Assembly: GCF_001011155.1 (NCBI RefSeq) | Contig: NZ_CP011479.1 | Coordinates: 948,501 to 1,012,500, forward strand | Reading direction: 5' to 3' | DNA from: Hoeflea sp. IMCC20628 | GTDB lineage: Bacteria; Pseudomonadota; Alphaproteobacteria; Rhizobiales; Rhizobiaceae | Length of the DNA: 64,000 bases | Notes under the pieces: generated by a model | The model's input: only the letters and a program-made list of their open reading frames with translations | Databases searched by the model: none | What the model was told of the DNA's origin: nothing | Translations under genes and position numbers: made by a program | In this document: positions 23,601-35,563 of the stretch, one piece after another | How the letters are laid out: every line of letters begins with the position of its first letter | How positions within the stretch are numbered: the first letter of the stretch is position 1

Positions 23601-23687
23601 CAGCAACCGCTCGGCGCCCTCGCTCCAGCCGGTGATCACGCCTTCCGGGTCAAGAAAGATAAGAGGTGCAGTCAGCGTCGTGTCCAT
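20658..23687 (-). CDS. Hybrid sensor histidine kinase with multiple PAS domains and two receiver domains
   Basis: This large soluble two-component protein has 1009 residues. About four PAS/PAC domains occupy residues ~1-480 and carry no transmembrane segment, so the signal is likely cytosolic. The phospho-acceptor His is near 509 in [12 protein letters not shown]. The HATPase domain follows, with N-box near 619 ([10 protein letters not shown]) and G-boxes near 660-690 ([20 protein letters not shown]). Two receiver domains end it, with phospho-acceptor Asp near 798 (MFTDVVMPG) and near 945 (LVTDVGLPD). The ATG at 23687 follows GGAAAG. No partner regulator is adjacent. It diverges from uvrB. 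Confidence 0.92.
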
Positions 23688-23926
23688 GCGATCTTTCCAT
23701 CGTGTCAACGCGACATGCCTGGAAACCGCTGGGCTCCCGACTGCCGCTCAAGTTGCAGCCGTATGTATCATATCCGGCAAGGATGCCTAGATGCAGAATT
23801 GTGGCAGTGCGACAGGGTACCAAGTGGCGCGCCCTGCTGACACCTGCTGTCAGCATCGGCCGGTTTGTTCCCCATATGCCCCGGCCACCCCTTTCTTTCG
23901 CCATCGACTCTGCCCATATTGCCGCT

Positions 23927-26911
23927 ATGGCAAAATCTCCTGCAAAATCATCCCGCCCGGACGGTTCCGAATTTGACGGCTTCGAGGAAGCGCCGCAGGC
24001 GCCGCTCAGCGGCGATCCGATCGCCAGTTCCGGCTCGATTGCCGACTGGGCCGCTGATCTGGCGAAAGAAGCCGAGCTCGACGCGGTGAAGGCGCGGCGC
24101 AAGGCGGAAAACCGCGAAATTCGCTCGCAGGCCGGCAAGCACCGGATGAAGGCGGGCAAGCTCAGCGTCGATGAGGCTGCGGCGCTGCCGCCGAAGGGCA
24201 AGGCCAAGAAGACCTCTGCCAAATCCACCAAGGAGAGCAACGCCAAATCGGCGCGCGGCACCTCGATGGGTGCGAGCACAGATCCACGGGCACGGTCTGC
24301 CGCCGGTCTCAACGCCGTGGCTGGCCTCGACATGTCGATGGAGGAGGCGGAAGCTTCCGGCGCCACCAGCGCCAACACCGCCACCGTGCAAGCATTGTCG
24401 GATCTGATCGAAAGCGGCAACCCGCTGTTCAAGAACGGCAAGACCTGGACGCCGCACCGTCCGGCACGGCCGGAGAAATCCGAGGGCGGCCACACCATCC
24501 GCATGGTCACCGAATATGAGCCGGCCGGCGACCAGCCGACGGCGATTGCCGATCTGGTGGCCGGTGCCAACGAGAACGAGCGCAACCAGGTGCTTTTGGG
24601 CGTCACCGGCTCGGGCAAGACCTTTACCATGGCCAAGGTGATCGCCGAGACCCAGCGCCCGGCCTTGATCCTGGCGCCGAACAAGACACTTGCCGCGCAG
24701 CTCTATTCCGAGTTCAAGAACTTCTTCCCCGACAATGCGGTCGAGTATTTCGTCTCCTATTACGATTACTACCAGCCGGAAGCCTATGTGCCGCGCACCG
24801 ACACCTTCATCGAGAAGGAATCGACCATCAACGAGCAGATCGACCGGATGCGCCACTCGGCCACCCGTTCGCTGATGGAGCGCGACGACGTCATCATCGT
24901 CGCTTCGGTCTCCTGCATCTACGGTATCGGCTCGGTGGAAACCTACACCGCCATGACCTTCCAGATGGCGGTCGGCGACCGCATCGACCAGCGCCAGTTG
25001 CTGGCCGACCTGGTGGCGCAGCAATACAAGCGCCGCGACATGGATTTCCAGCGCGGCTCGTTCCGGGTTCGCGGCGACACCATCGAACTGTTTCCGGCCC
25101 ACCTTGAAGACGCGGCTTGGCGGATCTCGATGTTCGGCGACGAGATCGAGACCATTGTCGAGTTCGATCCGCTCACCGGCCACAAGACCGGCGATCTGCA
25201 ATCGGTCAAGATCTACGCCAACTCGCACTATGTCACCCCACGGCCAACGCTGAACCAGGCGACAAAGCAGATCCGCGAGGAACTCAAGCATCGCCTCGTC
25301 GAACTCGAGGCCTCGGGCCGGCTGATCGAGGCGCAGCGGCTGGAGCAGCGCACCCGCTTCGATCTGGAAATGCTCGAGGCCACCGGCGTCTGCCAGGGCA
25401 TCGAGAACTATTCGCGCTATCTCACCGGTCGCGCGCCGGGTGAACCTCCGCCGACGCTGTTTGAATATATCCCCGACAACGCGCTGCTGTTCATCGACGA
25501 GAGCCATGTCTCGATCCCGCAGATCGGCGGCATGTACCGCGGCGACTTTCGCCGCAAGGCGACGCTGGCCGAATACGGCTTCCGGCTGCCCTCCTGTCTC
25601 GATAACCGACCGCTCAGGTTTGAGGAATGGGACGCGATGCGTCCCTCCACCGTTGCCGTTTCCGCCACCCCGGGCAGTTGGGAGATGGAACAGGCCGGCG
25701 GTGTCTTCGCCGAACAGGTGATCCGTCCCACCGGGCTGATCGACCCGCCGGTGGAAGTGCGTCCGGCCCGGGCCCAGGTCGACGATGTGCTGGGCGAAAT
25801 CCGCGCCACGGCGCAGGCTGGCTACCGCACCTTGTGCACGGTGCTGACCAAGCGCATGGCCGAGGACCTGACCGAATATCTGCACGAGCAGGGGGTTCGC
25901 GTCCGCTACATGCACTCCGACATCGACACACTGGAGCGGATCGAGATCATCCGCGATCTGCGCCTCGGCGCCTTCGACGTGCTGGTCGGCATCAACCTGT
26001 TGCGCGAGGGGCTCGACATCCCCGAATGCGCGCTGGTGGCGATTCTTGACGCCGACAAGGAAGGTTTCCTGCGCTCCGAGACCTCGCTGGTGCAGACCAT
26101 CGGCCGCGCCGCGCGTAATGTCGACGGCAAGGTCATTCTCTATGCCGACAAGATCACCGGCTCGATGGAGCGGGCGATGGAGGAGACCTCGCGGCGCCGC
26201 GCCAAGCAGGAAGAATACAACACCGCCCACGGCATCACGCCGGAATCGGTCAAGGCGCATATCTCCGACATTCTCGAATCGGTCTACGAACGCGACCATG
26301 TCCGCGCCTCGATTTCCGCACCCGGCGGCAAGGGCCAGGCCGGCAATGAGGGCGTCATGGTCGGCGCCAATCTCAAGGCGCATCTGGAAGCGCTGGAAAA
26401 GCAGATGCGCGATTCCGCCGCCGATCTCGATTTCGAAACAGCCGCCCGTCTGCGCGACGAGGTCAAGCGGCTGAAGGCGGTCGAGCTCGAAATGATGGAC
26501 GACCCGCTGGCGCGCAATGCCGGCATCGAAAACACCAAGGCCAGCCGCAAGGCCACCGCCACCGGCAAGCCGCAACGCGGTCCCTCCAAACCGGCCAATC
26601 CCGATATCCTGCGCAATCCGGAATCGAATTATTTCAAGAAGCCCTCGCTCGACAATATGGGCCCGGGCACCGACATGGTGAAACCGCTTGCGGGCTCCGC
26701 GGCACCGGACAAGGCCTCCTATTTCCGCAAGAACGATCTCGACGAAATGACCGTCGGCCGCACCGAAAAGCCGGTGCCGGGCGCCGCACCGAAAAAACCC
26801 GATGATCCGATCCTCAAGCGCGGCAAGGTCGGGGCAGGGTCCTACGAGGACCCGGCGGAAGCCGCCCGCAACAAGCGCCGCCCCGGCAAGACCGGCCGTC
26901 CGGGCAAATAG
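23927..26911 (+). CDS. uvrB: Excinuclease ABC subunit B
   Basis: This is the damage-verifying helicase-like subunit of nucleotide excision repair, acting with UvrA and UvrC. Of 994 residues, the helicase core begins about residue 185. The Walker A GVTGSGKT is at 225-232, the beta-hairpin [12 protein letters not shown] near 278, the DEXH-type FIDESH near 521, and the C-terminal UVR helix pair near 820. It is about 320 residues longer than the E. coli protein. The extra sequence is a charged, Lys/Ala-rich N-terminal extension plus a C-terminal tail, a layout known in rhizobial UvrB. The start is uncertain; 23876 is an alternative. Confidence 0.95.
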
Positions 26912-27093
26912 CGGCGTCCGACGCCGCCTCGTACCCGCAAAACCATGTTGCCGGGTTCACCCTCGGCCGCATCCCCGGCATTTGATTCAAATCCCGCTGC
27001 CCGGTTTAACCTCCGCCTAAACCGGGCAGCGCTAGGTTTTGCGCGACCCCGACACCGGCACCCGTTTGCCGTCAGCATAGGAGCGCCAGCCAG

Positions 27094-27384
27094 ATGCCAG
27101 ACTTCTTTCCCGTCACATTGTCCGGCTCAGGTGCCGTGTCCGGTGCCGCAGTCGTTGATCTCACCGCCTTGCCGGCGCTGCCGCTCCGGTCCGCTGGCGG
27201 CAAATCTTTCACGCGGATCGCACCTGCGGTCTGGCCGTCGCCCGGCGCGGTCGACCTGGTGAGCCAGTTGCTCGATCTCAGCGGCACCGCCATCACCCAT
27301 ACCGCCACCAATTCGATGCCCGAATCCGATTCCGATTTCTGGGGCATGCTGGCCGCAGCACTGCCGAAGGACGTGCAGGACTGA
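27094..27384 (+). CDS. Hypothetical small protein upstream of flagellar rod-domain gene
   Basis: This 96-residue frame (MPDFFPVTLSGSGAVSG…) has good GC-rich codon use and a fitting position. It ends about 140 bases before the rod-domain gene on the same strand. There is no signal peptide and no domain I recognise. It could be an accessory of the next gene or an unrelated hypothetical. Confidence 0.45.
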   Translation: MPDFFPVTLSGSGAVSGAAVVDLTALPALPLRSAGGKSFTRIAPAVWPSPGAVDLVSQLLDLSGTAITHTATNSMPESDSDFWGMLAAALPKDVQD

Positions 27385-27521
27385 ACTGGCCGTCCGGCTC
27401 GATTGCACCGCCGCCTTTCATGCTGACCATCAGCCCCTGCGCACACGCTTTGTTAACTGTTCTTGCTAACCTGGCCCTAATCTCCTGACGTTATGTTTGC
27501 GCGCACAAGGAGCAGCGCGTC

Positions 27522-27851
27522 ATGATTTCGAGCGTCATCACCACGGCATTTTCCGGCATGGCCGCGCAGCAGCAGCGGCTCGATTCGATTGCCAGCAACA
27601 TCGCCAATGCCGACACGCCCGATTATGCCCGCAAGCGCACCGACATGGTCACCGTGCCGGGCGGCGGGGTGAAGGCGGTAACGCGCGAGGCGCAGACCGG
27701 TGGTGTCGATCTCGCCACCGAACTGGTCGACCTGATCGGCACCAAAATCGCCTATGAGGCCAATGTCGTGGTCATGGAAACCGGCATGGACATGTGGGAC
27801 ACGCTGATGAGCGCGCTGGCCCCCGAGGACCGCGACGAGCGCTGGCGCTGA
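27522..27851 (+). CDS. Stand-alone flagellar basal-body rod-domain protein
   Basis: This 109-residue protein consists of the flagellar rod/hook N-terminal motif (MISSVITTAFSGMAAQQQRLDSIASNIAN, an ANADTP turn) and a C-terminal helix with AYEANVVVMETG, matching the matching ends of FlgB/FlgC-type rod proteins. It lacks the central domain of full-length rod or hook proteins and is shorter than FlgB or FlgC (~130-140 residues). It lies outside any flagellar operon. AAGGAG precedes the ATG. It may be a small rod-like component or a remnant under selection. Confidence 0.75.
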   Translation: MISSVITTAFSGMAAQQQRLDSIASNIANADTPDYARKRTDMVTVPGGGVKAVTREAQTGGVDLATELVDLIGTKIAYEANVVVMETGMDMWDTLMSALAPEDRDERWR

Positions 27852-27954
27852 TCGCGACCCGTTTGCCGCCTCGCTGAATTCGCTTCCCATCGGCCAAAAC
27901 CGTGCTAGATGGCAGGTTCAGCGCACACCCGCGTCAGCTTTCAGGATCATCGCC

Positions 27955-28098
27955 ATGTCCCGCCAGACCCTCACCATCGTCATCGCCATCATCGCCGTCG
28001 GCGCCGCCATCCTCGGCTACATGTATTACCAGGACCAGCAGACCTCCGGCGTCGAAATCAAGATCGGCGAAGGCGGCATTTCCATCGAAGAGAAGTAG
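27955..28098 (+). CDS. Small single-pass membrane protein (47 aa)
   Basis: This short frame starts MSRQTLTIVIAII, has one hydrophobic helix (residues ~6-25, TIVIAIIAVGAAILGYMYY) and a polar tail ending GISIEEK. Codon use is strongly GC-rich at third positions, as in neighbours, and 'CAGGAT' lies close upstream. It looks like a genuine tiny inner-membrane protein of the sort common in Rhizobiales, but its function is unknown. Confidence 0.6.
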   Translation: MSRQTLTIVIAIIAVGAAILGYMYYQDQQTSGVEIKIGEGGISIEEK

Positions 28099-28127
28099 GG
28101 CAGGGCAGGACTCGCGGCTTGTTCCCT

Positions 28128-28147
28128 CTCCCCCCTTGGTGGGGGAG
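28128..28147. repeat. C/G-rich hairpin in intergenic region
   Basis: CTCCCCC and GGGGGAG pair around a 6-base loop downstream of the small membrane gene. It may be a terminator-like or interspersed repeat hairpin. The rest of the interval up to 28329 shows no gene. Confidence 0.45.
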
Positions 28148-28329
28148 CCTCCAACCCCACGCCGTCACCCCGGACTTGATCCAGAGAAGCGAAGCGACGT
28201 CGTAGCCTCCGGGGTCCAGCAGCGTCTGCGTCGGCAGGCGCGGGATACTCGGTACTAATCTGCGACCTGCAAAAGGTCTCTCGGCTCGCGGACGCTCGCC
28301 CACTGGATGCCGGATCGACTGTTTCTTCG

Positions 28330-29104
28330 CTACATTGAATCAACTTTATCAATTATTTCGTAAATAAGCGGAAAATTTATCCCCTTGTTCTCCGCAATTT
28401 TAAACAAACTGGAAATAACGTTTGGAGATTTTGCAATTTCATTTTTATTTAATCCCCAAATCTCTGCAACCTCTAAATAAATTTCTTCTTTTAGTTCACC
28501 TAAGCAGTTGTCAATGTAGTCGTTCATATTTCCTTTTACAGAGCAAAATAGCTCATGGCTTCCATCGGGGTAGTCTACTGGATTTGGGTGACCGCATATT
28601 TTTTGCAATAATTTGTTTATTACAGCGTTGTTTTTTGTATCCTTTTTGTCAGAATCAAAAAGTACATAAACGGGAATTCCAAATTTCTTGAATATCACTG
28701 CTGGCTTATCTAATTTCGTCTTTCCATCGGTTCGAATAATTGCGATTCCATCGTCATCTGCACTTCTTCCTAGAGAGAGGTATGCCGCAGACAAGATTGC
28801 CTTATCCGATACTCCTTCTACGAGAATTATCCGATCAGCAAAAAAACCCTCAGATATCTCGTCGGTGAATATGTGCAGGGCAGCTAGAAAACGTTCATCA
28901 GAAAAGGGTTTGGCTGGTGGGTCTAAAAGGTTTGCCAACTCCTCACTAATTTCATTGATCTCACAGGTGGAGCAAATAGTCCTATATTCTTCGCCATCAG
29001 TGATTTTTCTGATAACTCTTAGTGCGTTGAAATCACTTAGTGCGATCATTTTTTCAGAGTGGGTTGTGTAAATCACCTGGATTCGAATGCCAGTAAGTTT
29101 GTCA
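28330..29104 (-). pseudogene. OLD-family ATPase/TOPRIM nuclease, C-terminal fragment
   Basis: This open frame of about 258 codons up to the IS boundary carries the end of an OLD-type protein. It opens with IQVIYTTHSEKM (the H-loop after Walker B of the ABC-type ATPase). It continues into a TOPRIM domain with ILVEGVSDKAIL (catalytic Glu) and VLFDSDKKD (DxD). The region is clearly AT-rich against its neighbours, pointing to transfer. The 5' part of the gene lies at 31909-32362 on the same strand, with a scrap at 30480-30545. Everything between is insertion sequence, and the Walker B segment is missing. OLD-family proteins include Gabija GajA and P2 Old, which act in phage exclusion. Confidence 0.85.
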
Positions 29105-30479
29105 GTAATTACCCACCCCCTTGCCATGCACCACAATGTCTGAATCCATGATGATATGGATCGGACTGATTTGCAGCAGCTGAGCAAGGACGAATTGATC
29201 GAGATGGTGCTTCGGCTCCAACGGCCTGCCAAGGATTCTCGGACGTCTTCCAAGCCGCCCTCTACGGACAAGAAAGAGAAACGCGTCAACTCACGACCGG
29301 GTGGAGCCAAGCCCGGGCATGAACCCCACAATAGGGTGCTGGCGGATTTTGCCGACATGTTTCGCGATCATGAACCGACCGCCTGCAAGAGATGCGGCCA
29401 TGCGTTTTCCGGTGATGATACGATGGTGCTGGCCGGGGCCTATGACGAGATCGATATTCCTGCGATCCGTCCTCATGTCACCCGGCATCGGCGTTTTTCC
29501 TGTCATTGCCCGCAATGCGGCACGACGACAAAAGCCACCGCACCTGCCGTGGCAACCGCAACGCCGTTCGGGCCAGGCATTCACGCGCTGGCGATCTACC
29601 TCAAGAGTTTCCATGCATTGTCTTACGAACGCCTGAGCGGTGTGTTCATGGATATCTTCGGCCTCCATGCGAGCGAGGGCGCGATCATGAACATGTTTGC
29701 CCGCTCCCGTCCGAGCTTCCAGGCCACAGCACAGGCCGCCAAGGCCAGCCTTCGAGCCGCCCGCGTTGTCGCCAGCGACGAAACCGGTGTGCGTATTGAG
29801 GGCACAAATGCCCAACACTGGGTTTTTCATTGCAAGGATGCCGTTGTCCACCAGCCCGATTACTCCCGTGCAGCACGGGTCGTTCACGAGACCATGGGCG
29901 GCCATGTCCCCGAGGTATGGATATCTGATCGGTATTCAGCCCAGCAATCTCACGGCCATCGACATCAAACCTGCCTTGCACATTTGGCGCGTGATACAGC
30001 CTTTGCGCTGGAACATGGCGAGGATGATCTCCCTCTTCGCTTCCAGCTTTGGTTTGGCCGTGTGTTTGATTTCGCCAGAGCCATAAGCACATTCGCTGCG
30101 TCTACCGTCGCAAGCAAGAAGCGCAAATTCGATAAACAGCTTGCCGGGCTTCTATGCGCCCCGACTTCATGCGACCTGGCCCAAAAGCTCCAGGCCAAGA
30201 TCGGGCGGGCCCGCGATCAGCTGCTGACGTTTTGCGACTATCCCGGAGAAGTCGATGTCACCAACAACACATCTGAGCGAAAGCTCCGTCCATGGGTCAT
30301 TCAGCGAAAGGTGACAAACGGATATCGCGCCATGTGGGCCGCCCAAGCCGAAGCGAACATACGCACGACAGTCGATACCGCACGCCTCAAAGGCGCAAAC
30401 CCCTTCCAGGTCATCGCATCCGTCCTGGCATAGGCCGGTAGAAGAACCGGAAATCACGAATTCAGGGGTGGGTAATTAC
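29105..30479 (+). mobile_element. IS66-family element (ISBst12-like, single transposase), copy 1
   Basis: The element is 1375 bp, bounded by inverted ends GTAATTACCCACCCC and GGGGTGGGTAATTAC. It inserts into the OLD-family gene. Its outer flanks (GTTTGTCA on the left, GCTGAGTT on the right) do not match, so no target duplication remains. A deletion or inter-copy recombination next to it is likely. It is the same length and encodes the same protein as the copy at 33265-34639, which lies in inverted orientation. Confidence 0.9.
29156..30433 (+). CDS. IS66-family transposase, copy 1
   Basis: This is an intact 425-residue transposase. An N-terminal helix (LQQLSKDELIEMVLRL) and a Lys/Ser/Pro linker lead to a zinc-binding domain with CKRCGHAF and CHCPQCGTT. 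A DDE core follows, with first Asp in VASDETGV, second in WISDRYSAQ, and Glu in NNTSERKLRPW. The lack of accessory TnpA/TnpB-like ORFs fits the ISBst12 subgroup. It has the same predicted protein as the minus-strand copy at 33311-34588. Confidence 0.93.
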   Translation: MDRTDLQQLSKDELIEMVLRLQRPAKDSRTSSKPPSTDKKEKRVNSRPGGAKPGHEPHNRVLADFADMFRDHEPTACKRCGHAFSGDDTMVLAGAYDEIDIPAIRPHVTRHRRFSCHCPQCGTTTKATAPAVATATPFGPGIHALAIYLKSFHALSYERLSGVFMDIFGLHASEGAIMNMFARSRPSFQATAQAAKASLRAARVVASDETGVRIEGTNAQHWVFHCKDAVVHQPDYSRAARVVHETMGGHVPEVWISDRYSAQQSHGHRHQTCLAHLARDTAFALEHGEDDLPLRFQLWFGRVFDFARAISTFAASTVASKKRKFDKQLAGLLCAPTSCDLAQKLQAKIGRARDQLLTFCDYPGEVDVTNNTSERKLRPWVIQRKVTNGYRAMWAAQAEANIRTTVDTARLKGANPFQVIASVLA

Positions 30480-30545
30480 GCTGAGTTTCATATTCGACTA
30501 AATTTTCTTCACAAGCTTCTGCGTTTGGCGCAGGAGTTATTGTCA
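30480..30545 (-). pseudogene. OLD-family gene, internal 22-codon scrap between two IS elements
   Basis: Read on the minus strand, these 66 bases give an open frame (TITPAPNAEACEENLVEYETQ) trapped between the IS256 element and IS66 copy 1. Orientation and composition match the OLD fragments on either side. It does not join in frame to the C-terminal fragment without a missing piece. Confidence 0.5.
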
Positions 30546-31908
30546 AATCTGGTGTTTGAGGCTTGTCGGTCATGCGGCGATCTGGTGGGGGTTTGTAGCT
30601 TCAATTCCGTCTTTGAACGTGACGCCTGTGATGACTTTGGCCAGGTAATCAAAGCCGCGTAGTTTTCGCCAGTTTTGCTCGGCGCATTGCCCCAGCTTGA
30701 ACATCATGTGCAGCATGCCTTCGCGGGTCAGGCAGCCCTTTGAACGCTTGGTGCGATGCCGGATCGTGGCAAACGCAGATTCAATTGGGTTGCTGGTGCG
30801 GATGCTCTGCCAATGCTGGGCGGGGAAGTCGAAGAATGCCATGAGCTCTTCGCGATCTTTTTGCAGGCACAGCGCTGCCTTGGGATACTTTGGCTCATAG
30901 GTTTTGATGAACAAATCGAATGCCTTGTTCGCATCGTCTTTGGTCTCAGCCTGCCAGATATCGTGGATCGCGGCCTTGGCCTTTGGCTGAGACAGCTTGG
31001 GCAGGCAGTTGAGCACGTTCATCGTTTTGTGCTGCCAACATCGCTGCTGGCGGGTCTCGGGGTATACTTCCTCCAGCGCCGCCCAGAACCCCATGGCTCC
31101 GTCTCCAATCGCCAGCTTGGGGGCATTCATTCCTCGGCTGTTCAGGCTCAACAGAACCTCGCGCCAACTCTGCGTGGACTCGCGCACCCCGTCCTCAATG
31201 GCCAGGAACCGCTTTTTGCCACGGGCCGTAACGCCAACAATCACAAGGGCGCACAGCTTGTCGTTCTCGCCCCGAAGCCCGCTATGGACGCCGTCAGCCC
31301 AGATATAGACGATTGGCTCGTCATCGAACGCAGCGTCTCTCCAACCGTCGTACTCCTTTGCCCAATCACGCTTGAGCCGCGACACAGTATTCGCCGATAA
31401 GCCAGCGGCATCAGGGCCCAGAAGAACCTTGAGGGCAGCGCCCATTTCGCCGCTGGAAACACCTTTGAGATAAAGCCATGGCAAGGCCGCTTCCAACGTT
31501 CTGGTTCTGCGCACATAGGGTGGCACCAGGGCAGATCGAAATGTCACCGGTGTGCCGTCCTTGGATCGAACCTTTGGAATGCGCACGTTCACGGGGCCAA
31601 TGCCGGTCTGTACTGGCCGAGCCGGATGATGCCCATTACGAACAACAGCTGCGTGACCTGCCTCAGTGCGCAAGTCGGCAAATTGCGCCAGATAACTGAC
31701 AAGCTCTGCCTCGACTGCTGTCGCGATCAATTGCTGGGCTCCCGTTCTCAACAAATCCGTCAGCGTGTCCGTCATCCCGTCTCGACGCGCAAAATCAACA
31801 ATGTTAGTCGTCTCCATGGTGGCGTATCTCCTTTGGTTGGGCTGCTGTCTCGCAACAACAAATCAACCAGATACGCCGCCAACCTTCAAACCGCCCAAAC
31901 ACCAGATT
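30546..31908 (-). mobile_element. IS256-family element
   Basis: The element is about 1363 bp, with inverted ends that share 13 identical bases (AATCTGGTGTTTG). It inserts into the OLD-family gene. The 8 bases next to each end (TATTGTCA and CAGTCATA) differ, so the expected 8-bp duplication is absent. This suggests a deletion beside the element after insertion. Confidence 0.85.
30570..31817 (-). CDS. IS256-family transposase
   Basis: This is an intact 415-residue Mutator-type DDE transposase. Key residues are Asp in YIWADGVHSG, Asp in LAIGDGAMGFW (with the family's C/H motif QQRCWQHKTMNVL just after), and Glu in SNPIESAFATIRHR. Full length and no stop make it potentially active. It lies within the OLD-family pseudogene. 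Confidence 0.95.
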   Translation of the reverse strand: METTNIVDFARRDGMTDTLTDLLRTGAQQLIATAVEAELVSYLAQFADLRTEAGHAAVVRNGHHPARPVQTGIGPVNVRIPKVRSKDGTPVTFRSALVPPYVRRTRTLEAALPWLYLKGVSSGEMGAALKVLLGPDAAGLSANTVSRLKRDWAKEYDGWRDAAFDDEPIVYIWADGVHSGLRGENDKLCALVIVGVTARGKKRFLAIEDGVRESTQSWREVLLSLNSRGMNAPKLAIGDGAMGFWAALEEVYPETRQQRCWQHKTMNVLNCLPKLSQPKAKAAIHDIWQAETKDDANKAFDLFIKTYEPKYPKAALCLQKDREELMAFFDFPAQHWQSIRTSNPIESAFATIRHRTKRSKGCLTREGMLHMMFKLGQCAEQNWRKLRGFDYLAKVITGVTFKDGIEATNPHQIAA

Positions 31909-32362
31909 CAGTCATAGCTCTTGGCGCAGCTGCAAGATCTGAAAATTGTTTCCGTATTTCTGTGTATATTTTGCGTTTTTCTGTTTTGCTGGATTCATTG
32001 TAGAAATCTTGGAAATTTGGATGAGATTTTCTATATATGGCGTACCCACCACTGCGATCACTAGACGAAACCTCTCTGGTTATTGTGAGGGTTTGATCTA
32101 CTATTGAATTTGAAAATTCTTTCATTTCAGAAGGGGTTAATTTTGAGAAGGTTATGGTTATAAGTATTGGCTTGGACGTGTCTCGCCCAAAATGATCGTG
32201 ACCCGATATTTTGGGGGCAGCTTCAAAAAAGATCTCAATCGCTCGAAGGATGGTGGACTTTCCAGCATTATTAGATCCGAGTATTGATGTGAATTTGTCA
32301 AAATCCATTTTGAGAGAATCTATAGATTTGAAGCCGATTATCTCAATTGAGCTTATAAGCAT
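31909..32362 (-). pseudogene. OLD-family ATPase/TOPRIM nuclease, N-terminal fragment
   Basis: These are 151 codons from ATG at 32362 up to the IS256 end. The start (MLISSIEIIGFKSIDSL) and Walker A (ILGSNNAGKSTILRAI) are the N-terminus of OLD/RecF-like ABC ATPases. The sequence is AT-rich. Its ATG overlaps the TAA of the KTSC gene as TAATG, so the two formed a coupled operon. The remainder is at 28330-29104 with a scrap at 30480-30545. Confidence 0.85.
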
Positions 32363-32472
32363 TATGATTTCTTTGAGTATTTGTATTTTTTGGTAATAGT
32401 CTTTGCAACATATCTGCCCACTGAATCGGCAGACAATATTTCTTGGAACACTGAAGCTGGCACATTATAATA
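32362..32472 (-). pseudogene. KTSC-domain protein, C-terminal half (split by IS)
   Basis: This fragment encodes VPASVFQEILSADSVGRYV and then KKYKYSKKS, the C-terminal half of a KTSC domain (Pfam PF13619, suggested to bind RNA). The N-terminal half is at 34640-34755. Removing 32473-34639 plus one copy of the 8-bp duplication restores a 72-codon frame with the family's YxY centre (TYVYYNVP). Confidence 0.85.
32465..32472. repeat. Target site duplication TTATAATA (left)
   Basis: This is an exact 8-bp match to 34640-34647, directly abutting the IS66-type end at 32473. Eight bases is the usual duplication length for IS66 elements. Confidence 0.85.
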
Positions 32473-33264
32473 GTAATTACCCACCCCTGAATTTATGATT
32501 TCGGGCCTTGATGTCGGCCTACGCCAAGACGGATGCGATAACCTGGAAGGGATTTGCGCCTTTAAGGCGGGCGGTATCGACGGTTGTGCGTACATCCGCC
32601 TCGGCTTGGGCGGCCCACATGGCGCGATATCCGTTTGTCACCTTTCTCTGAATGACCCATGGACGGAGCTTTCGCTCAGATGTGTTGTTGGTGACATCGA
32701 CTTCTCCGGGATAGTCGCAAAACGTCAGCAGCTGATCGCGGGCCCGCCCGATCTTGGCCTGGAGCTTTTGGGCCAGGTCGCATGAAGTCGGGGCGCATAG
32801 AAGCCCCGCAAGCTGTTTATCGAATTTGCGCTTCTTGCTTGCGACGGTAGACGCAGCGAATGTGCTTATGGCTCTGGCGAAATCAAACACACGGCCAAAC
32901 CAAAGCTGGAAGCGAAGAGGGAGATCATCCTCGCCATGTTCCAGCGCAAAGGCTGTATCACGCGCCAAATGTGCAAGGCAGGTTTGATGTCGGTGGCCGT
33001 GAGATTGCTGGGCTGAATACCGATCAGATATCCATACCTCGGGGACATGGCCGCCCATGGTCTCGTGAACGACCCGTGCTGCACGGGAGTAATCGGGCTG
33101 GTGGACAACGGCATCCTTGCAATGAAAAACCCAGTGCTGAGCATTCGTGCCCTCGATGCGCACACCGGTTTCGTCGCTGGCGACAACGCGGGCGGCTCGA
33201 AGGCTGGCCTCGGCGGCCTGTGCTGTGGCCTGGAAGCTCGGACGGGAGCGGGCAAACATGTTCA
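32473..33264 (-). mobile_element. IS66-family element copy 2, 3'-terminal fragment
   Basis: This fragment has the same end sequence (GTAATTACCCACCCC) as the other copies but is diverged at many positions near the terminus. Its transposase frame (32519-33259) lacks the first ~180 residues. It starts abruptly at MFARSRPSFQATAQAAEAS where copy 3 is inserted. The missing 5' part is nowhere adjacent. Confidence 0.88.
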
Positions 33265-34639
33265 GTAATTACCCACCCCTGAATTCGTGATTTCCGGTTC
33301 TTCTACCGGCCTATGCCAGGACGGATGCGATGACCTGGAAGGGGTTTGCGCCTTTGAGGCGTGCGGTATCGACTGTCGTGCGTATGTTCGCTTCGGCTTG
33401 GGCGGCCCACATGGCGCGATATCCGTTTGTCACCTTTCGCTGAATGACCCATGGACGGAGCTTTCGCTCAGATGTGTTGTTGGTGACATCGACTTCTCCG
33501 GGATAGTCGCAAAACGTCAGCAGCTGATCGCGGGCCCGCCCGATCTTGGCCTGGAGCTTTTGGGCCAGGTCGCATGAAGTCGGGGCGCATAGAAGCCCGG
33601 CAAGCTGTTTATCGAATTTGCGCTTCTTGCTTGCGACGGTAGACGCAGCGAATGTGCTTATGGCTCTGGCGAAATCAAACACACGGCCAAACCAAAGCTG
33701 GAAGCGAAGAGGGAGATCATCCTCGCCATGTTCCAGCGCAAAGGCTGTATCACGCGCCAAATGTGCAAGGCAGGTTTGATGTCGATGGCCGTGAGATTGC
33801 TGGGCTGAATACCGATCAGATATCCATACCTCGGGGACATGGCCGCCCATGGTCTCGTGAACGACCCGTGCTGCACGGGAGTAATCGGGCTGGTGGACAA
33901 CGGCATCCTTGCAATGAAAAACCCAGTGTTGGGCATTTGTGCCCTCAATACGCACACCGGTTTCGTCGCTGGCGACAACGCGGGCGGCTCGAAGGCTGGC
34001 CTTGGCGGCCTGTGCTGTGGCCTGGAAGCTCGGACGGGAGCGGGCAAACATGTTCATGATCGCGCCCTCGCTCGCATGGAGGCCGAAGATATCCATGAAC
34101 ACACCGCTCAGGCGTTCGTAAGACAATGCATGGAAACTCTTGAGGTAGATCGCCAGCGCGTGAATGCCTGGCCCGAACGGCGTTGCGGTTGCCACGGCAG
34201 GTGCGGTGGCTTTTGTCGTCGTGCCGCATTGCGGGCAATGACAGGAAAAACGCCGATGCCGGGTGACATGAGGACGGATCGCAGGAATATCGATCTCGTC
34301 ATAGGCCCCGGCCAGCACCATCGTATCATCACCGGAAAACGCATGGCCGCATCTCTTGCAGGCGGTCGGTTCATGATCGCGAAACATGTCGGCAAAATCC
34401 GCCAGCACCCTATTGTGGGGTTCATGCCCGGGCTTGGCTCCACCCGGTCGTGAGTTGACGCGTTTCTCTTTCTTATCCGTAGAGGGCGGCTTGGAAGACG
34501 TCCGAGAATCCTTGGCAGGCCGTTGGAGCCGAAGCACCATCTCGATCAATTCGTCCTTGCTCAGCTGCTGCAAATCAGTCCGATCCATATCATCATGGAT
34601 TCAGACATTGTGGTGCATGGCAAGGGGGTGGGTAATTAC
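33265..34639 (-). mobile_element. IS66-family element copy 3, complete
   Basis: The element is 1375 bp with both inverted ends, identical in length to copy 1. Its left end sits inside copy 2 and its right end abuts the right-hand TTATAATA duplication. The duplication thus frames the copy 2 fragment plus copy 3 as one unit. The simplest reading is that copy 3 entered copy 2, and then recombination between their 5' parts removed the extra sequence. Confidence 0.9.
33311..34588 (-). CDS. IS66-family transposase, copy 3
   Basis: This intact 425-residue transposase has the same predicted sequence as copy 1: zinc-binding CKRCGHAF/CHCPQCG, the DDE residues in VASDETGV and WISDRYSAQ, and Glu in NNTSERKLRPW. 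Identity of the two proteins points to recent transposition. Confidence 0.93.
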   Translation of the reverse strand: MDRTDLQQLSKDELIEMVLRLQRPAKDSRTSSKPPSTDKKEKRVNSRPGGAKPGHEPHNRVLADFADMFRDHEPTACKRCGHAFSGDDTMVLAGAYDEIDIPAIRPHVTRHRRFSCHCPQCGTTTKATAPAVATATPFGPGIHALAIYLKSFHALSYERLSGVFMDIFGLHASEGAIMNMFARSRPSFQATAQAAKASLRAARVVASDETGVRIEGTNAQHWVFHCKDAVVHQPDYSRAARVVHETMGGHVPEVWISDRYSAQQSHGHRHQTCLAHLARDTAFALEHGEDDLPLRFQLWFGRVFDFARAISTFAASTVASKKRKFDKQLAGLLCAPTSCDLAQKLQAKIGRARDQLLTFCDYPGEVDVTNNTSERKLRPWVIQRKVTNGYRAMWAAQAEANIRTTVDTARLKGANPFQVIASVLA

Positions 34640-34647
34640 TTATAATA
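34640..34647. repeat. Target site duplication TTATAATA (right)
   Basis: This 8-bp sequence is identical to 32465-32472 and flanks the nested IS66 pair. Confidence 0.85.
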
Positions 34648-34755
34648 TACGTACGTGTGCTTATCCCTAAAGCTGACCTCGAGCTCCGATTTGTCTTCGT
34701 CAAAGCAAACTTGGCGCACACTGGTAGAATCCGGAAACTCTTGGCAAATTGACAT
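34640..34755 (-). pseudogene. KTSC-domain protein, N-terminal half (split by IS)
   Basis: The fragment starts at ATG 34755 with GGTGAG about 5 bases upstream. It reads MSICQEFPDSTSVRQVC, then ELEVSFRDKHTYVYY, and stops at the IS boundary. It joins in frame to 32362-32472. The intact 72-residue protein would be the first gene of an operon with the OLD-family nuclease. Confidence 0.85.
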
Positions 34756-35563
34756 AAGACTCACCTATTGGGCTCGGGAAATGATTGTAACCATCAGGTG
34801 AATTGGATTTCAATGCAATGCGCTAAGTTGTACTAGGGAAAATTTTGCTTTGTTGCTCACCCCCCCACATTCTTTTCCCCACCCTCCACCCCCATGCCAT
34901 ACTCGTCTCACTCCCGCTGCCGGATGGGTCGCGAACGTTTCGATGCAGGCGGGAGGGAATGCCCCTGATCGGGTGCGCTGACGTAGCGCCTCGGGTGAGG
35001 GGAGGCGGAGGCCATTGCGGTTCCGCTGGCGGGCGGTGTTCTTGCGAGCGCCGTGCAAAGCCAGCCACCGGGCCGGGTTCAGCCCCACGCCAGCCGCAAG
35101 GCGGGTGAGGGGGGGTGGCACCGGACCGGGCCTGTGGCGGACATGATGTGACTGGATGCAGCCCGCGCCCGAAATATTTTGGGCGCACACCGGGAAGCAT
35201 CGCTACAGCGCATCAGGGTCCGTGCCGGAACGCGGCAAAAGCCTCTCTCACGGTCTGTCCGGATCGTGGCCGGAGTAATCCGGGCGGGGACCTGGTGGAT
35301 AAGCCACCCCCGCGTGAGGCGAGGCACCGTCTGTCGGATGCGGACAGCGTCCGGCGGGTTCCGGGCCGCGCGCGTGTTGCGCCACCCATTCATACCCCCA
35401 GAGAGGCACAGCCCGCGCGCGGCCCTCCGGACTATCCGCCTGTCGCGCGAAAGGGCTTGCCCTTGAGCGATAACGTACAGGCGTAGCAAAGGATTTTCCC
35501 ACACCCCGGCGGCCTTGTCGCGCGGCGGCGTTTGCGGCTGCGCACAGGCCGCCGCGAAGCGGC
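34756..35563. other. GC-rich interval with overlapping open frames, no gene supported
   Basis: Roughly the first 90 bases should hold the KTSC-operon promoter. From ~34855 a pyrimidine-rich tract leads into about 700 very GC-rich bases where frames on both strands stay open without conserved motifs, signal peptides or good ribosome binding sites. Several local inverted repeats are present. It could be decayed sequence, a structured RNA or a long regulatory stretch; the sequence alone does not decide. Confidence 0.5.

What the first reader, a model, noticed from the sequence alone, without database searches (positions are those of the whole stretch)
28330..34755. Interrupted KTSC-domain + OLD-family nuclease operon
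Removing insertion sequences shows a coupled two-gene unit: a 72-residue KTSC-domain protein whose TAA overlaps the ATG (TAATG) of an OLD-type ATPase/TOPRIM protein. OLD-family nucleases (Old, GajA) take part in phage exclusion. Pairing one with a small KTSC protein, a suggested RNA-binding domain, is not a described system that I know of. The KTSC frame rejoins exactly across a target duplication. The unit is AT-rich and foreign.
Basis: partly seen in the sequence, partly recalled or inferred. Interest (0 to 1): 0.75.

Follow-up and report, generated by a model that had tools for sequence, protein, structure and literature searches.

The report
Wrecked KTSC–OLD two-gene defence unit
This is the broken remains of a small two-gene unit, a tiny KTSC protein next to an OLD-type DNA-cutting enzyme, whose intact versions recur in distant bacteria and archaea and suggest a shared accessory part of anti-virus defences that has not been named for OLD enzymes.

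Summary
A KTSC gene (PF13619) is split by a 2,167-bp composite IS66-type insert with an 8-bp duplication, and its stop overlaps the start of an OLD gene (TAATG). But the OLD gene is not merely interrupted: besides an IS256-type and an IS66-type insertion it has lost about 214 residues, including the ABC signature and Walker B, not found elsewhere in the genome. This copy is dead. The insert, absent from the matching region of 9 of 9 same-genus relatives compared, carries only these two genes plus insertion sequences. The pairing itself is real: KTSC lies within 130 nt of OLD in 6 of 80 OLD loci collected without regard to KTSC, and nowhere else in their 0.78 Mb of flanks. With other surveys I found 11 further places, from Alphaproteobacteria and Myxococcota to archaea, with at least four separate gains or losses on the OLD tree. 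It is a minority habit: the window gene's closest relatives lack KTSC. KTSC also occurs with SIR2–HerA systems as a third gene or a C-terminal domain. Best reading: KTSC is an optional accessory (targeting or docking) of ATPase-driven defence enzymes, and KTSC–OLD is an undescribed variant of the OLD kind. Its function is inferred, not shown.

The parts
28317..34859 (.). acquired segment: KTSC + OLD remains plus insertion sequences, between conserved uvrB-side and YARHG/DUF922-side DNA
   Evidence: blastn against closest same-genus relative L260: alignment stops at 28316 and resumes at 34860, about 460 bp apart there; no hit to the segment in any of 9 relatives' regions
34642..34755 (-). KTSC gene, 5' half (38 residues, PF13619 positions 2-30)
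32362..32472 (-). KTSC gene, 3' half with stop codon (PF13619 positions 29-58)
32473..34639 (.). composite IS66-type insert: truncated copy 32473-33264 plus full copy 33265-34639 (transposase ORF 33311-34588, -)
   Evidence: IS66 family by the Pfam match of the same transposase at 29156-30433; TSD TTATAATA at 32465-32472 / 34640-34647
32360..32364 (-). TAATG: KTSC stop overlapping OLD start
31921..32362 (-). OLD gene, N-terminal piece (147 residues, Walker A GSNNAGKST)
   Evidence: AAA_15 3e-17; matches residues 1-147 of L010
30534..31920 (.). IS256/Mutator-type element (transposase ORF 30570-31817, -), 9-bp duplication TTGGCGCAG at 30525-30533 and 31921-31929
   Evidence: Transposase_mut 5.6e-58
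30480..30533 (-). OLD gene, short middle piece (17 residues, aligned to L010 146-162)
29105..30479 (.). IS66-type element copy (transposase ORF 29156-30433, +), no target duplication; sits where about 214 OLD residues are missing
28330..29104 (-). OLD gene, C-terminal piece (257 residues): end of ATPase domain and TOPRIM with LVEG and DSD motifs
   Evidence: OLD-like_TOPRIM 2e-18; matches L010 377-634

Best explanation
The segment is a dead copy of a horizontally acquired two-gene unit. In intact copies elsewhere, a KTSC protein of about 70 residues is usually encoded first, on the same strand and often with overlapping or nearly touching reading frames, followed by a 620-660-residue OLD ATPase-TOPRIM nuclease. 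Most likely mechanism (inferred): KTSC is a nucleic-acid-binding or docking subunit that binds the OLD enzyme, or its substrate, and directs or licenses ATP-gated DNA cleavage by the TOPRIM domain on invading DNA, giving phage or plasmid exclusion. KTSC is an optional, exchangeable part: it was taken up several times by OLD enzymes and, independently, by SIR2-HerA defence complexes. Shown: anatomy, damage by insertions and deletion, acquisition as a bare two-gene cargo, non-random recurrence of the pair, sharing of KTSC with SIR2-HerA. Inferred: co-transcription, defence activity, physical contact, what KTSC recognises.
For: Pair not by chance: in 80 OLD loci collected with an OLD query, all 6 KTSC genes found lie within 130 nt of OLD and none in the rest of 784 kb of flank; if scattered evenly, the chance of all six within 150 nt is about 7e-10 (Pfam check). 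Independent finds starting from KTSC: G273, G956, G1410. Junctions: 1-nt overlap (window), 14-nt overlap (L013), gaps of 1, 2, 7 and 13 nt (L139, L247, L142, L137), about 82 and 127 nt (L043, L088). Pairing kept within clades (L139+L142, two archaeal phyla; L013+L043; L247+L137), with at least four separate gains or losses on the OLD tree. The acquired insert in the window holds nothing but these two genes and insertion sequences. KTSC as third gene after SIR2 and ATP-binding genes in 4 of 8 plasmid places read, next to HerA in 5 genome loci, and fused to HerA's C-terminus in L057 and in PDB 8wiv; four entries with that HerA chain (8wld, 8woc, 8wod, 8wof) also hold a SIR2 chain.
Against: 74 of 80 OLD loci have no KTSC in the stretch held, and the window gene's own closest relatives have none, so OLD does not need it. 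Among KTSC genes OLD is a rare neighbour: besides the window's, 0 of 57 other KTSC genomes in the Pseudomonadota sample. OLD-linked KTSC proteins do not cluster on the KTSC tree (11 changes, shuffled mean 10.7, 500 of 500 shuffles as low), while HerA-linked ones do (6 against 8.8, 0 of 500). KTSC and OLD identities correlate only weakly (Pearson r = 0.39, permutation p = 0.066; Spearman 0.35, p = 0.09; 9 pairs). Arrangement varies: 2 convergent (L124, L132), 1 downstream (L291). In L309 no usual start codon stands at the conserved beginning of OLD. No defence assay, no binding data; no structure prediction could be obtained.
Confidence: 0.5

Rival explanations
1. KTSC is a restraint: an antitoxin-like upstream partner that keeps a self-harming OLD nuclease off until infection removes or titrates it.
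For: Small gene first, overlapping or abutting the enzyme gene, as in many toxin-antitoxin operons. Old of phage P2 kills recBC-deficient cells (PMC10568477, part 1 of 5 read). Two KTSC-OLD loci were found damaged (window by insertion sequences; Archangium L137, OLD cut short between two copies of the same ORF, which I take for a mobile element), as expected of a costly gene.
Against: OLD relatives without KTSC are the majority. KTSC is fused to HerA in nature and in a solved protein, odd for a labile restraint. In L291 it is the second gene, in L124 and L132 it is on the other strand.
Confidence: 0.2
2. No functional link: KTSC and OLD are separate passengers of defence islands and mobile elements that end up side by side.
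For: Rare pairing, variable arrangement, no significant co-divergence, no clustering of OLD-linked KTSCs. KTSC is a recurrent cargo: with one KTSC query 48 of 50,697 phage records and 68 of 72,556 plasmid records match.
Against: All 6 KTSC genes found in 80 OLD neighbourhoods abut OLD and none is elsewhere in the same flanks; repeated overlaps and short gaps; pairs kept across deep divergence, e.g. two archaeal phyla with 46% identical OLDs; the window insert carries only this pair.
Confidence: 0.15
3. KTSC is a bait: a captured copy of a phage KTSC protein that OLD (or SIR2-HerA) guards, so that a phage factor acting on KTSC fires the enzyme.
For: KTSC proteins occur as small phage genes; OLD-linked KTSCs do not form one lineage, as if captured repeatedly.
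Against: No phage factor acting on KTSC is known to me; KTSC is also tied to lysyl-tRNA synthetase and called RNA-binding in one paper (PMC7824862, passage), which suggests plain nucleic-acid binding.
Confidence: 0.07

Closest known systems
Class 1 OLD nucleases (P2 Old, Thermus scotoductus OLD, PDB 6P74)
   Same: One-chain AAA_15/ABC ATPase plus PF20469 TOPRIM; best PDB sequence match of the KTSC-paired OLD L043 is 6p74 (6.5e-20); PADLOC 'Old' is the first or second match of the four KTSC-paired OLDs scanned
   Different: Class 1 is defined by standing alone (PMC10568477 part 1, PMC12796447 passages); here a KTSC gene is coupled to it
Gabija (class 2 OLD, GajA + GajB)
   Same: OLD-type enzyme with a partner gene
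   Different: No UvrD-like partner in the window insert; KTSC is a different, much smaller protein than the helicase GajB
PARIS (class 4, AriA + AriB)
   Same: AAA_15 ATPase profile (AriA is a top PADLOC match)
   Different: TOPRIM is fused and of the PF20469 type; no separate AriB-like gene in the insert
SIR2-HerA with KTSC (PDB 8w9l/8wiv series)
   Same: KTSC in or beside an ATPase of a SIR2-HerA set, as third gene or C-terminal domain
   Different: Effector is a SIR2 protein with a HerA motor, not an OLD nuclease
HerA + KTSC + endoDNase neighbourhoods (remark in PMC9503650)
   Same: KTSC coupled to a P-loop ATPase and a DNase
   Different: There HerA, here OLD; given there as unpublished observation (passage read)

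Membership tests
OLD family nuclease | N-terminal AAA_15/ABC ATPase domain with Walker A | tested here: met
   N piece AAA_15 3e-17, GSNNAGKST
OLD family nuclease | C-terminal OLD-type TOPRIM (PF20469) with acidic motif | tested here: met
   C piece 2e-18; LVEG and DSD aligned with intact relatives
OLD family nuclease | ABC signature and Walker B present (working ATPase) | tested here: not met
   About 214 residues missing in the window copy, spanning GHGLQR and IEEPEIYQHP of L010; GHGLQR and EEPE are invariant in the four intact relatives aligned. This bars a working enzyme, not family descent
OLD class 1 (stand-alone gene) | No conserved partner gene | tested here: not met
   Coupled KTSC gene, though most relatives are without KTSC
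Gabija / OLD class 2 | UvrD-like helicase gene alongside | tested here: not met
   ORF list and synteny: the insert 28317-34859 holds KTSC, OLD pieces and transposases only
Retron-type OLD / class 3 | Reverse transcriptase and ncRNA alongside | tested here: not met
   No room for a reverse transcriptase in the insert; no Rfam scan was made for the ncRNA
PARIS / class 4 | Separate AriA and AriB genes | tested here: not met
   L043 and L139 carry ATPase and PF20469 TOPRIM on one chain of 626 and 638 residues
KTSC family (PF13619) | Match above curated cut-off | tested here: met
   27.2 and 32.5 bits for the two halves, cut-off 25
SIR2-HerA-KTSC system | SIR2 and HerA genes with KTSC | tested here: not met
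   No such genes in the insert
Anti-phage defence system | Protection against phage | not testable with these tools
   Needs a plaque assay

The most novel reading that the evidence does not exclude
KTSC is an exchangeable recognition cartridge used by unrelated defence engines: SIR2-HerA complexes, OLD nucleases and SbcCD-like/OLD clusters all carry it, as a coupled gene or a fused domain, so the small protein and not the effector would set what is sensed. KTSC-OLD would then be a further, undescribed class of OLD system.
Probability: 0.3. Interest if true: 0.75.

Novelty: new variant of a known kind. Interest (0 to 1): 0.5.

Why it matters
OLD enzymes are sorted largely by their partner genes, and my searches of an open-licence library showed no paper on an OLD class with KTSC. 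If KTSC turns out to aim or gate both OLD and SIR2-HerA, one domain of about 60 residues with solved structures (4rgi, 7x8c, and HerA 8wiv by sequence) would help explain how unrelated ATPase defences choose their target. The window copy itself is only a relic.

Tried and rejected
Rejected: 'the operon is intact once insertion sequences are ignored' (about 214 residues lost). Rejected: 'KTSC is the regular partner of this OLD subfamily' (closest relatives lack it). Considered: single ancient KTSC-OLD system; not supported, since OLD-linked KTSCs do not cluster and co-divergence is not significant, although the KTSC tree has only 58 columns, is poorly resolved, and the window's split KTSC was not on it. 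Considered: a uvrB-side insertion hotspot, because the G273 pair also lies just downstream of uvrB (L043); left open. L189/L269 (partial KTSC before an 804-residue AAA_15 protein, with a gene that looks UvrD-like to me by eye, not scanned) not counted as a pair: only 22-23 KTSC positions match. Dropped or limited: the Pfam scan of KTSC neighbours took 9 chosen neighbours of KTSC, not all neighbours of the 116 distinct KTSC loci, so HerA counts are lower bounds; 8 of 71 plasmid KTSC places were read. The OLD tree kept long rows and the partial window row. No structure model and no fold search could be made.
Full report
WHAT IS THERE. The window lies in one contig of a 5.12-Mb, three-contig genome. 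A genome of the same family (G031) has a contig of the same length, and an identical OLD protein, as a named 'Rhizobiaceae bacterium' record, so the family is probably Rhizobiaceae; the species is not told. Reading on the minus strand, a KTSC gene starts at 34755. Its first 38 codons and its last 36 codons each match PF13619 above the curated cut-off (27.2 and 32.5 bits); between them lie 2,167 bp of IS66-type DNA (32473-34639), a 792-bp truncated copy followed by a full 1,375-bp copy, flanked by TTATAATA. The stop overlaps the ATG of the next gene as TAATG. That gene is an OLD-type protein: N piece AAA_15, C piece OLD-like_TOPRIM. A 9-bp duplication flanks a Mutator/IS256-type element between the N piece and a short middle piece.

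THE OLD GENE IS DELETED, NOT ONLY INTERRUPTED. Against the intact relative L010 (634 residues from the conserved start; 43% identical over the C piece) the N piece covers residues 1-147, the middle piece 146-162 and the C piece 377-634 (the middle piece is short and its alignment weak). The IS66 copy at 29105-30479 sits in this gap and has no target duplication. The lost 214 or so residues include the signature GHGLQR and the Walker B region; GHGLQR and EEPE-YQHP are invariant in the four intact relatives aligned. A search of the own genome with the whole L010 protein finds the two window pieces and one weak match over residues 2-45, but not the missing middle.

IT ARRIVED AS A BARE TWO-GENE INSERT. 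Of 18 same-genus genomes searched, 17 (own included) hold the DUF922 gene to the right of the insert. I fetched the region in 9 of the other 16. uvrB lies in 8 of these 9 stretches, DUF922 in all 9 and the YARHG gene in 4, with the order of the window. In the closest one (L260) the DNA matches the window up to 28316 and again from 34860; about 460 bp lie between there, 6,543 here. None of the 9 regions has a blastn match to the segment between, nor a KTSC or OLD match by profile. Five of 8 compared by blastn (L260, L262, L263, L265, L267) show matching DNA near both edges (L264 was left out of that call); the short left-edge matches could be dispersed repeats, since L268 has two such hits elsewhere. 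The pieces have 34-44% GC against 64% on both sides. Apart from insertion sequences I see KTSC and OLD and no other gene in the insert.

IS THE PAIR REAL ELSEWHERE? KTSC genes were found in 6 of 80, all within 130 nt of OLD, and none elsewhere in 784 kb of flank; six evenly scattered genes would all fall within 150 nt with a chance of about 7e-10. Pfam confirms all six. Four are upstream on the same strand (L088 Actinomycetota, L137 Archangium, L139 Nitrososphaerota, L142 Theionarchaea), two convergent behind OLD (L124, L132). In the window's family 5 genomes other than the own hold 6 matches to the C piece (151 genomes searched); 1 of the 6 loci has KTSC in front (L013 in G141). A class search with L010 gave 5 further loci in 385 genomes, of which 1 has KTSC (G273). 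A viral-contig scan gave 12 relatives, 1 with KTSC, placed behind OLD with a TGATG overlap (L291).

Starting from KTSC: 18 of 387 class genomes carry it, OLD next door in the own genome and G273; 58 of 397 Pseudomonadota genomes, OLD next door only in the own genome; 9 of 179 in the phylum of G539, OLD next door in G539 (the chosen centre) and G956; 1 of 115 in the phylum of G541, which is that centre itself; 5 of 200 in the phylum of G540, OLD next door in the centre and in G1410. The class and phylum samples share some genomes, and some stretches end at contig ends. KTSC is thus rare, and OLD is one of its minority neighbours.

JUNCTIONS AND TREES. Same-strand KTSC-first junctions: window 1-nt overlap, L013 14-nt overlap (20 from an earlier ATG), L139, L247, L142 and L137 gaps of 1, 2, 7 and 13 nt, L043 about 82, L088 127. 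In L309 the frames lie 11 nt apart but no usual start codon stands at the conserved beginning of OLD. On a tree of 89 OLD rows the upstream-KTSC label (8 rows; L309 was not yet known) needs 5 changes, 4 of them forced by well-supported branches; shuffled labels need 7.8 on average and none of 500 was as low. So the pair is inherited within clades (L139+L142 from two archaeal phyla; L013+L043; L247+L137) and was gained or lost several times. The window row holds only 39% of the columns and some branches are long, so its exact place is loose; its nearest rows, L010 and L011, have no KTSC. On the KTSC side (117 rows, 58 columns, poorly resolved; the window's split gene not included) OLD-linked proteins do not cluster (11 rows, 11 changes; shuffled mean 10.7), HerA-linked ones do (9 rows, 6 changes; shuffled mean 8.8). 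Identities of KTSC and OLD over 9 pairs correlate weakly (r = 0.39, p = 0.066). This fits repeated uptake better than one old system.

KTSC IN OTHER DEFENCES. In 5 genome loci the gene that precedes and abuts KTSC is HerA (Pfam DUF87, HerA_C), and in L057 HerA and KTSC are one chain. Of 8 plasmid places read out of 71, 4 show SIR2, ATP-binding protein and KTSC in a row (Bradyrhizobium, E. coli, Rhizobium, Sulfitobacter; the others 101, 102, 108, 109). A solved HerA chain (8wiv and six more entries) bears KTSC at its C-terminus, four of these entries also hold a SIR2 chain, and the E. coli plasmid's SIR2 protein matches that chain at 3.5e-68. A remark in PMC9503650 mentions HerA coupled to a DNA-binding KTSC protein and an endoDNase as an unpublished observation (one passage read).

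CONTEXT. L124 has AbiEi/AbiEii genes beside it; L142 has a phage integrase gene close by; L088 lies next to a PADLOC candidate PDC-S06 and behind SbcD-like and SbcC-like genes. L137 is again a damaged copy: the OLD frame ends after 391 codons, and copies of one 414-codon ORF lie on both sides. Enrichment near defence genes was not tested.

MECHANISM. I hold as most likely that KTSC is an optional nucleic-acid-binding or docking subunit that directs or licenses the OLD enzyme. For it: coupling, sharing with SIR2-HerA, fusion to HerA, existence of OLD without KTSC. The main rival is an antitoxin-like restraint; against it stand OLD enzymes that do without KTSC, the HerA fusion, and the reversed order in L291. 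Neither contact nor activity was tested.

COMPARISON WITH WHAT IS KNOWN. OLD enzymes are sorted in print into classes 1-5 by partners and other traits (PMC10568477, part 1 of 5 read; PMC12796447, passages); the passages I saw name no KTSC, and 'KTSC' does not occur in the held text of PMC12796447. Searches for KTSC with domain, OLD family, defense, crystal structure, and HerA/Sir2/OLD/TOPRIM (listings, some capped) showed no paper on a KTSC-OLD pair; the library holds open-licence papers only. I file the pair as a new variant of the OLD kind, and the window copy as a dead member.

LIMITS. Adjacency statistics assume even scattering within the fetched flanks. Draft contigs can hide neighbours: 76 of 80 loci have at least 300 nt before the OLD frame.

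Noticed in passing
window 32473-34639; own genome, 7 places (L300-L306): A 792-bp truncated IS66-type copy and a full copy sit together as a 2,167-bp composite at 7 places; 3 have an 8-bp duplication around the whole (L300, L302, window L306), two more (L303, L304) carry each other's flank halves as reverse complements, which fits an inversion between them; L301 and L305 show none. 42 matches to this element in the genome, partial ones included.
   Followed up: partly
L063, L064, L066, L067, L071, L076, L078, L081, L088, L121, L124, L132, L135, L138: 14 of 80 OLD loci have both an SbcD-like metallophosphoesterase and an SbcC/Rad50-like gene close to OLD; 3 of these 14 also have KTSC. One paper search for 'OLD nuclease' with SbcC found nothing.
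   Followed up: partly
plasmid loci L294, L295, L296, L299; L157, L158, L160, L161, L163; L057: KTSC as third gene behind SIR2 and an ATP-binding gene, as gene abutting HerA, and fused to HerA.
   Followed up: partly
L049:8877-9914, L159:446-1477, L165:444-1481: KTSC directly in front of a family of about 345 residues; no Pfam match at 1e-3 for the two scanned (L049, L159), start regions alike in all three.
   Followed up: no
L137:3278-8444: Archangium KTSC-OLD pair: OLD frame ends after 391 codons and alike 414-codon ORFs (first 80 residues identical as printed) lie on both sides, so a second KTSC-OLD locus is damaged, perhaps by a mobile element.
   Followed up: partly
L043:8031-13526 and window 23666-34859: The KTSC-OLD unit of G273 also lies just downstream of uvrB, one gene away, as the window's lies 1.4 kb beyond uvrB; orientation to uvrB differs.
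   Followed up: no
L291:3980-6090: Viral contig with OLD followed by KTSC, stop and start overlapping as TGATG, the mirror order of the window.
   Followed up: no
L012:7995-9898: A near relative of the window's OLD gene (G141) is itself split into two ORFs (134 and 424 codons) without KTSC.
   Followed up: no
L269:3580-7332: Partial KTSC match (22-23 positions) directly before an 804-residue AAA_15 protein and then a gene that looks UvrD-like by eye; may be another KTSC-ATPase pair or a chance match.
   Followed up: partly
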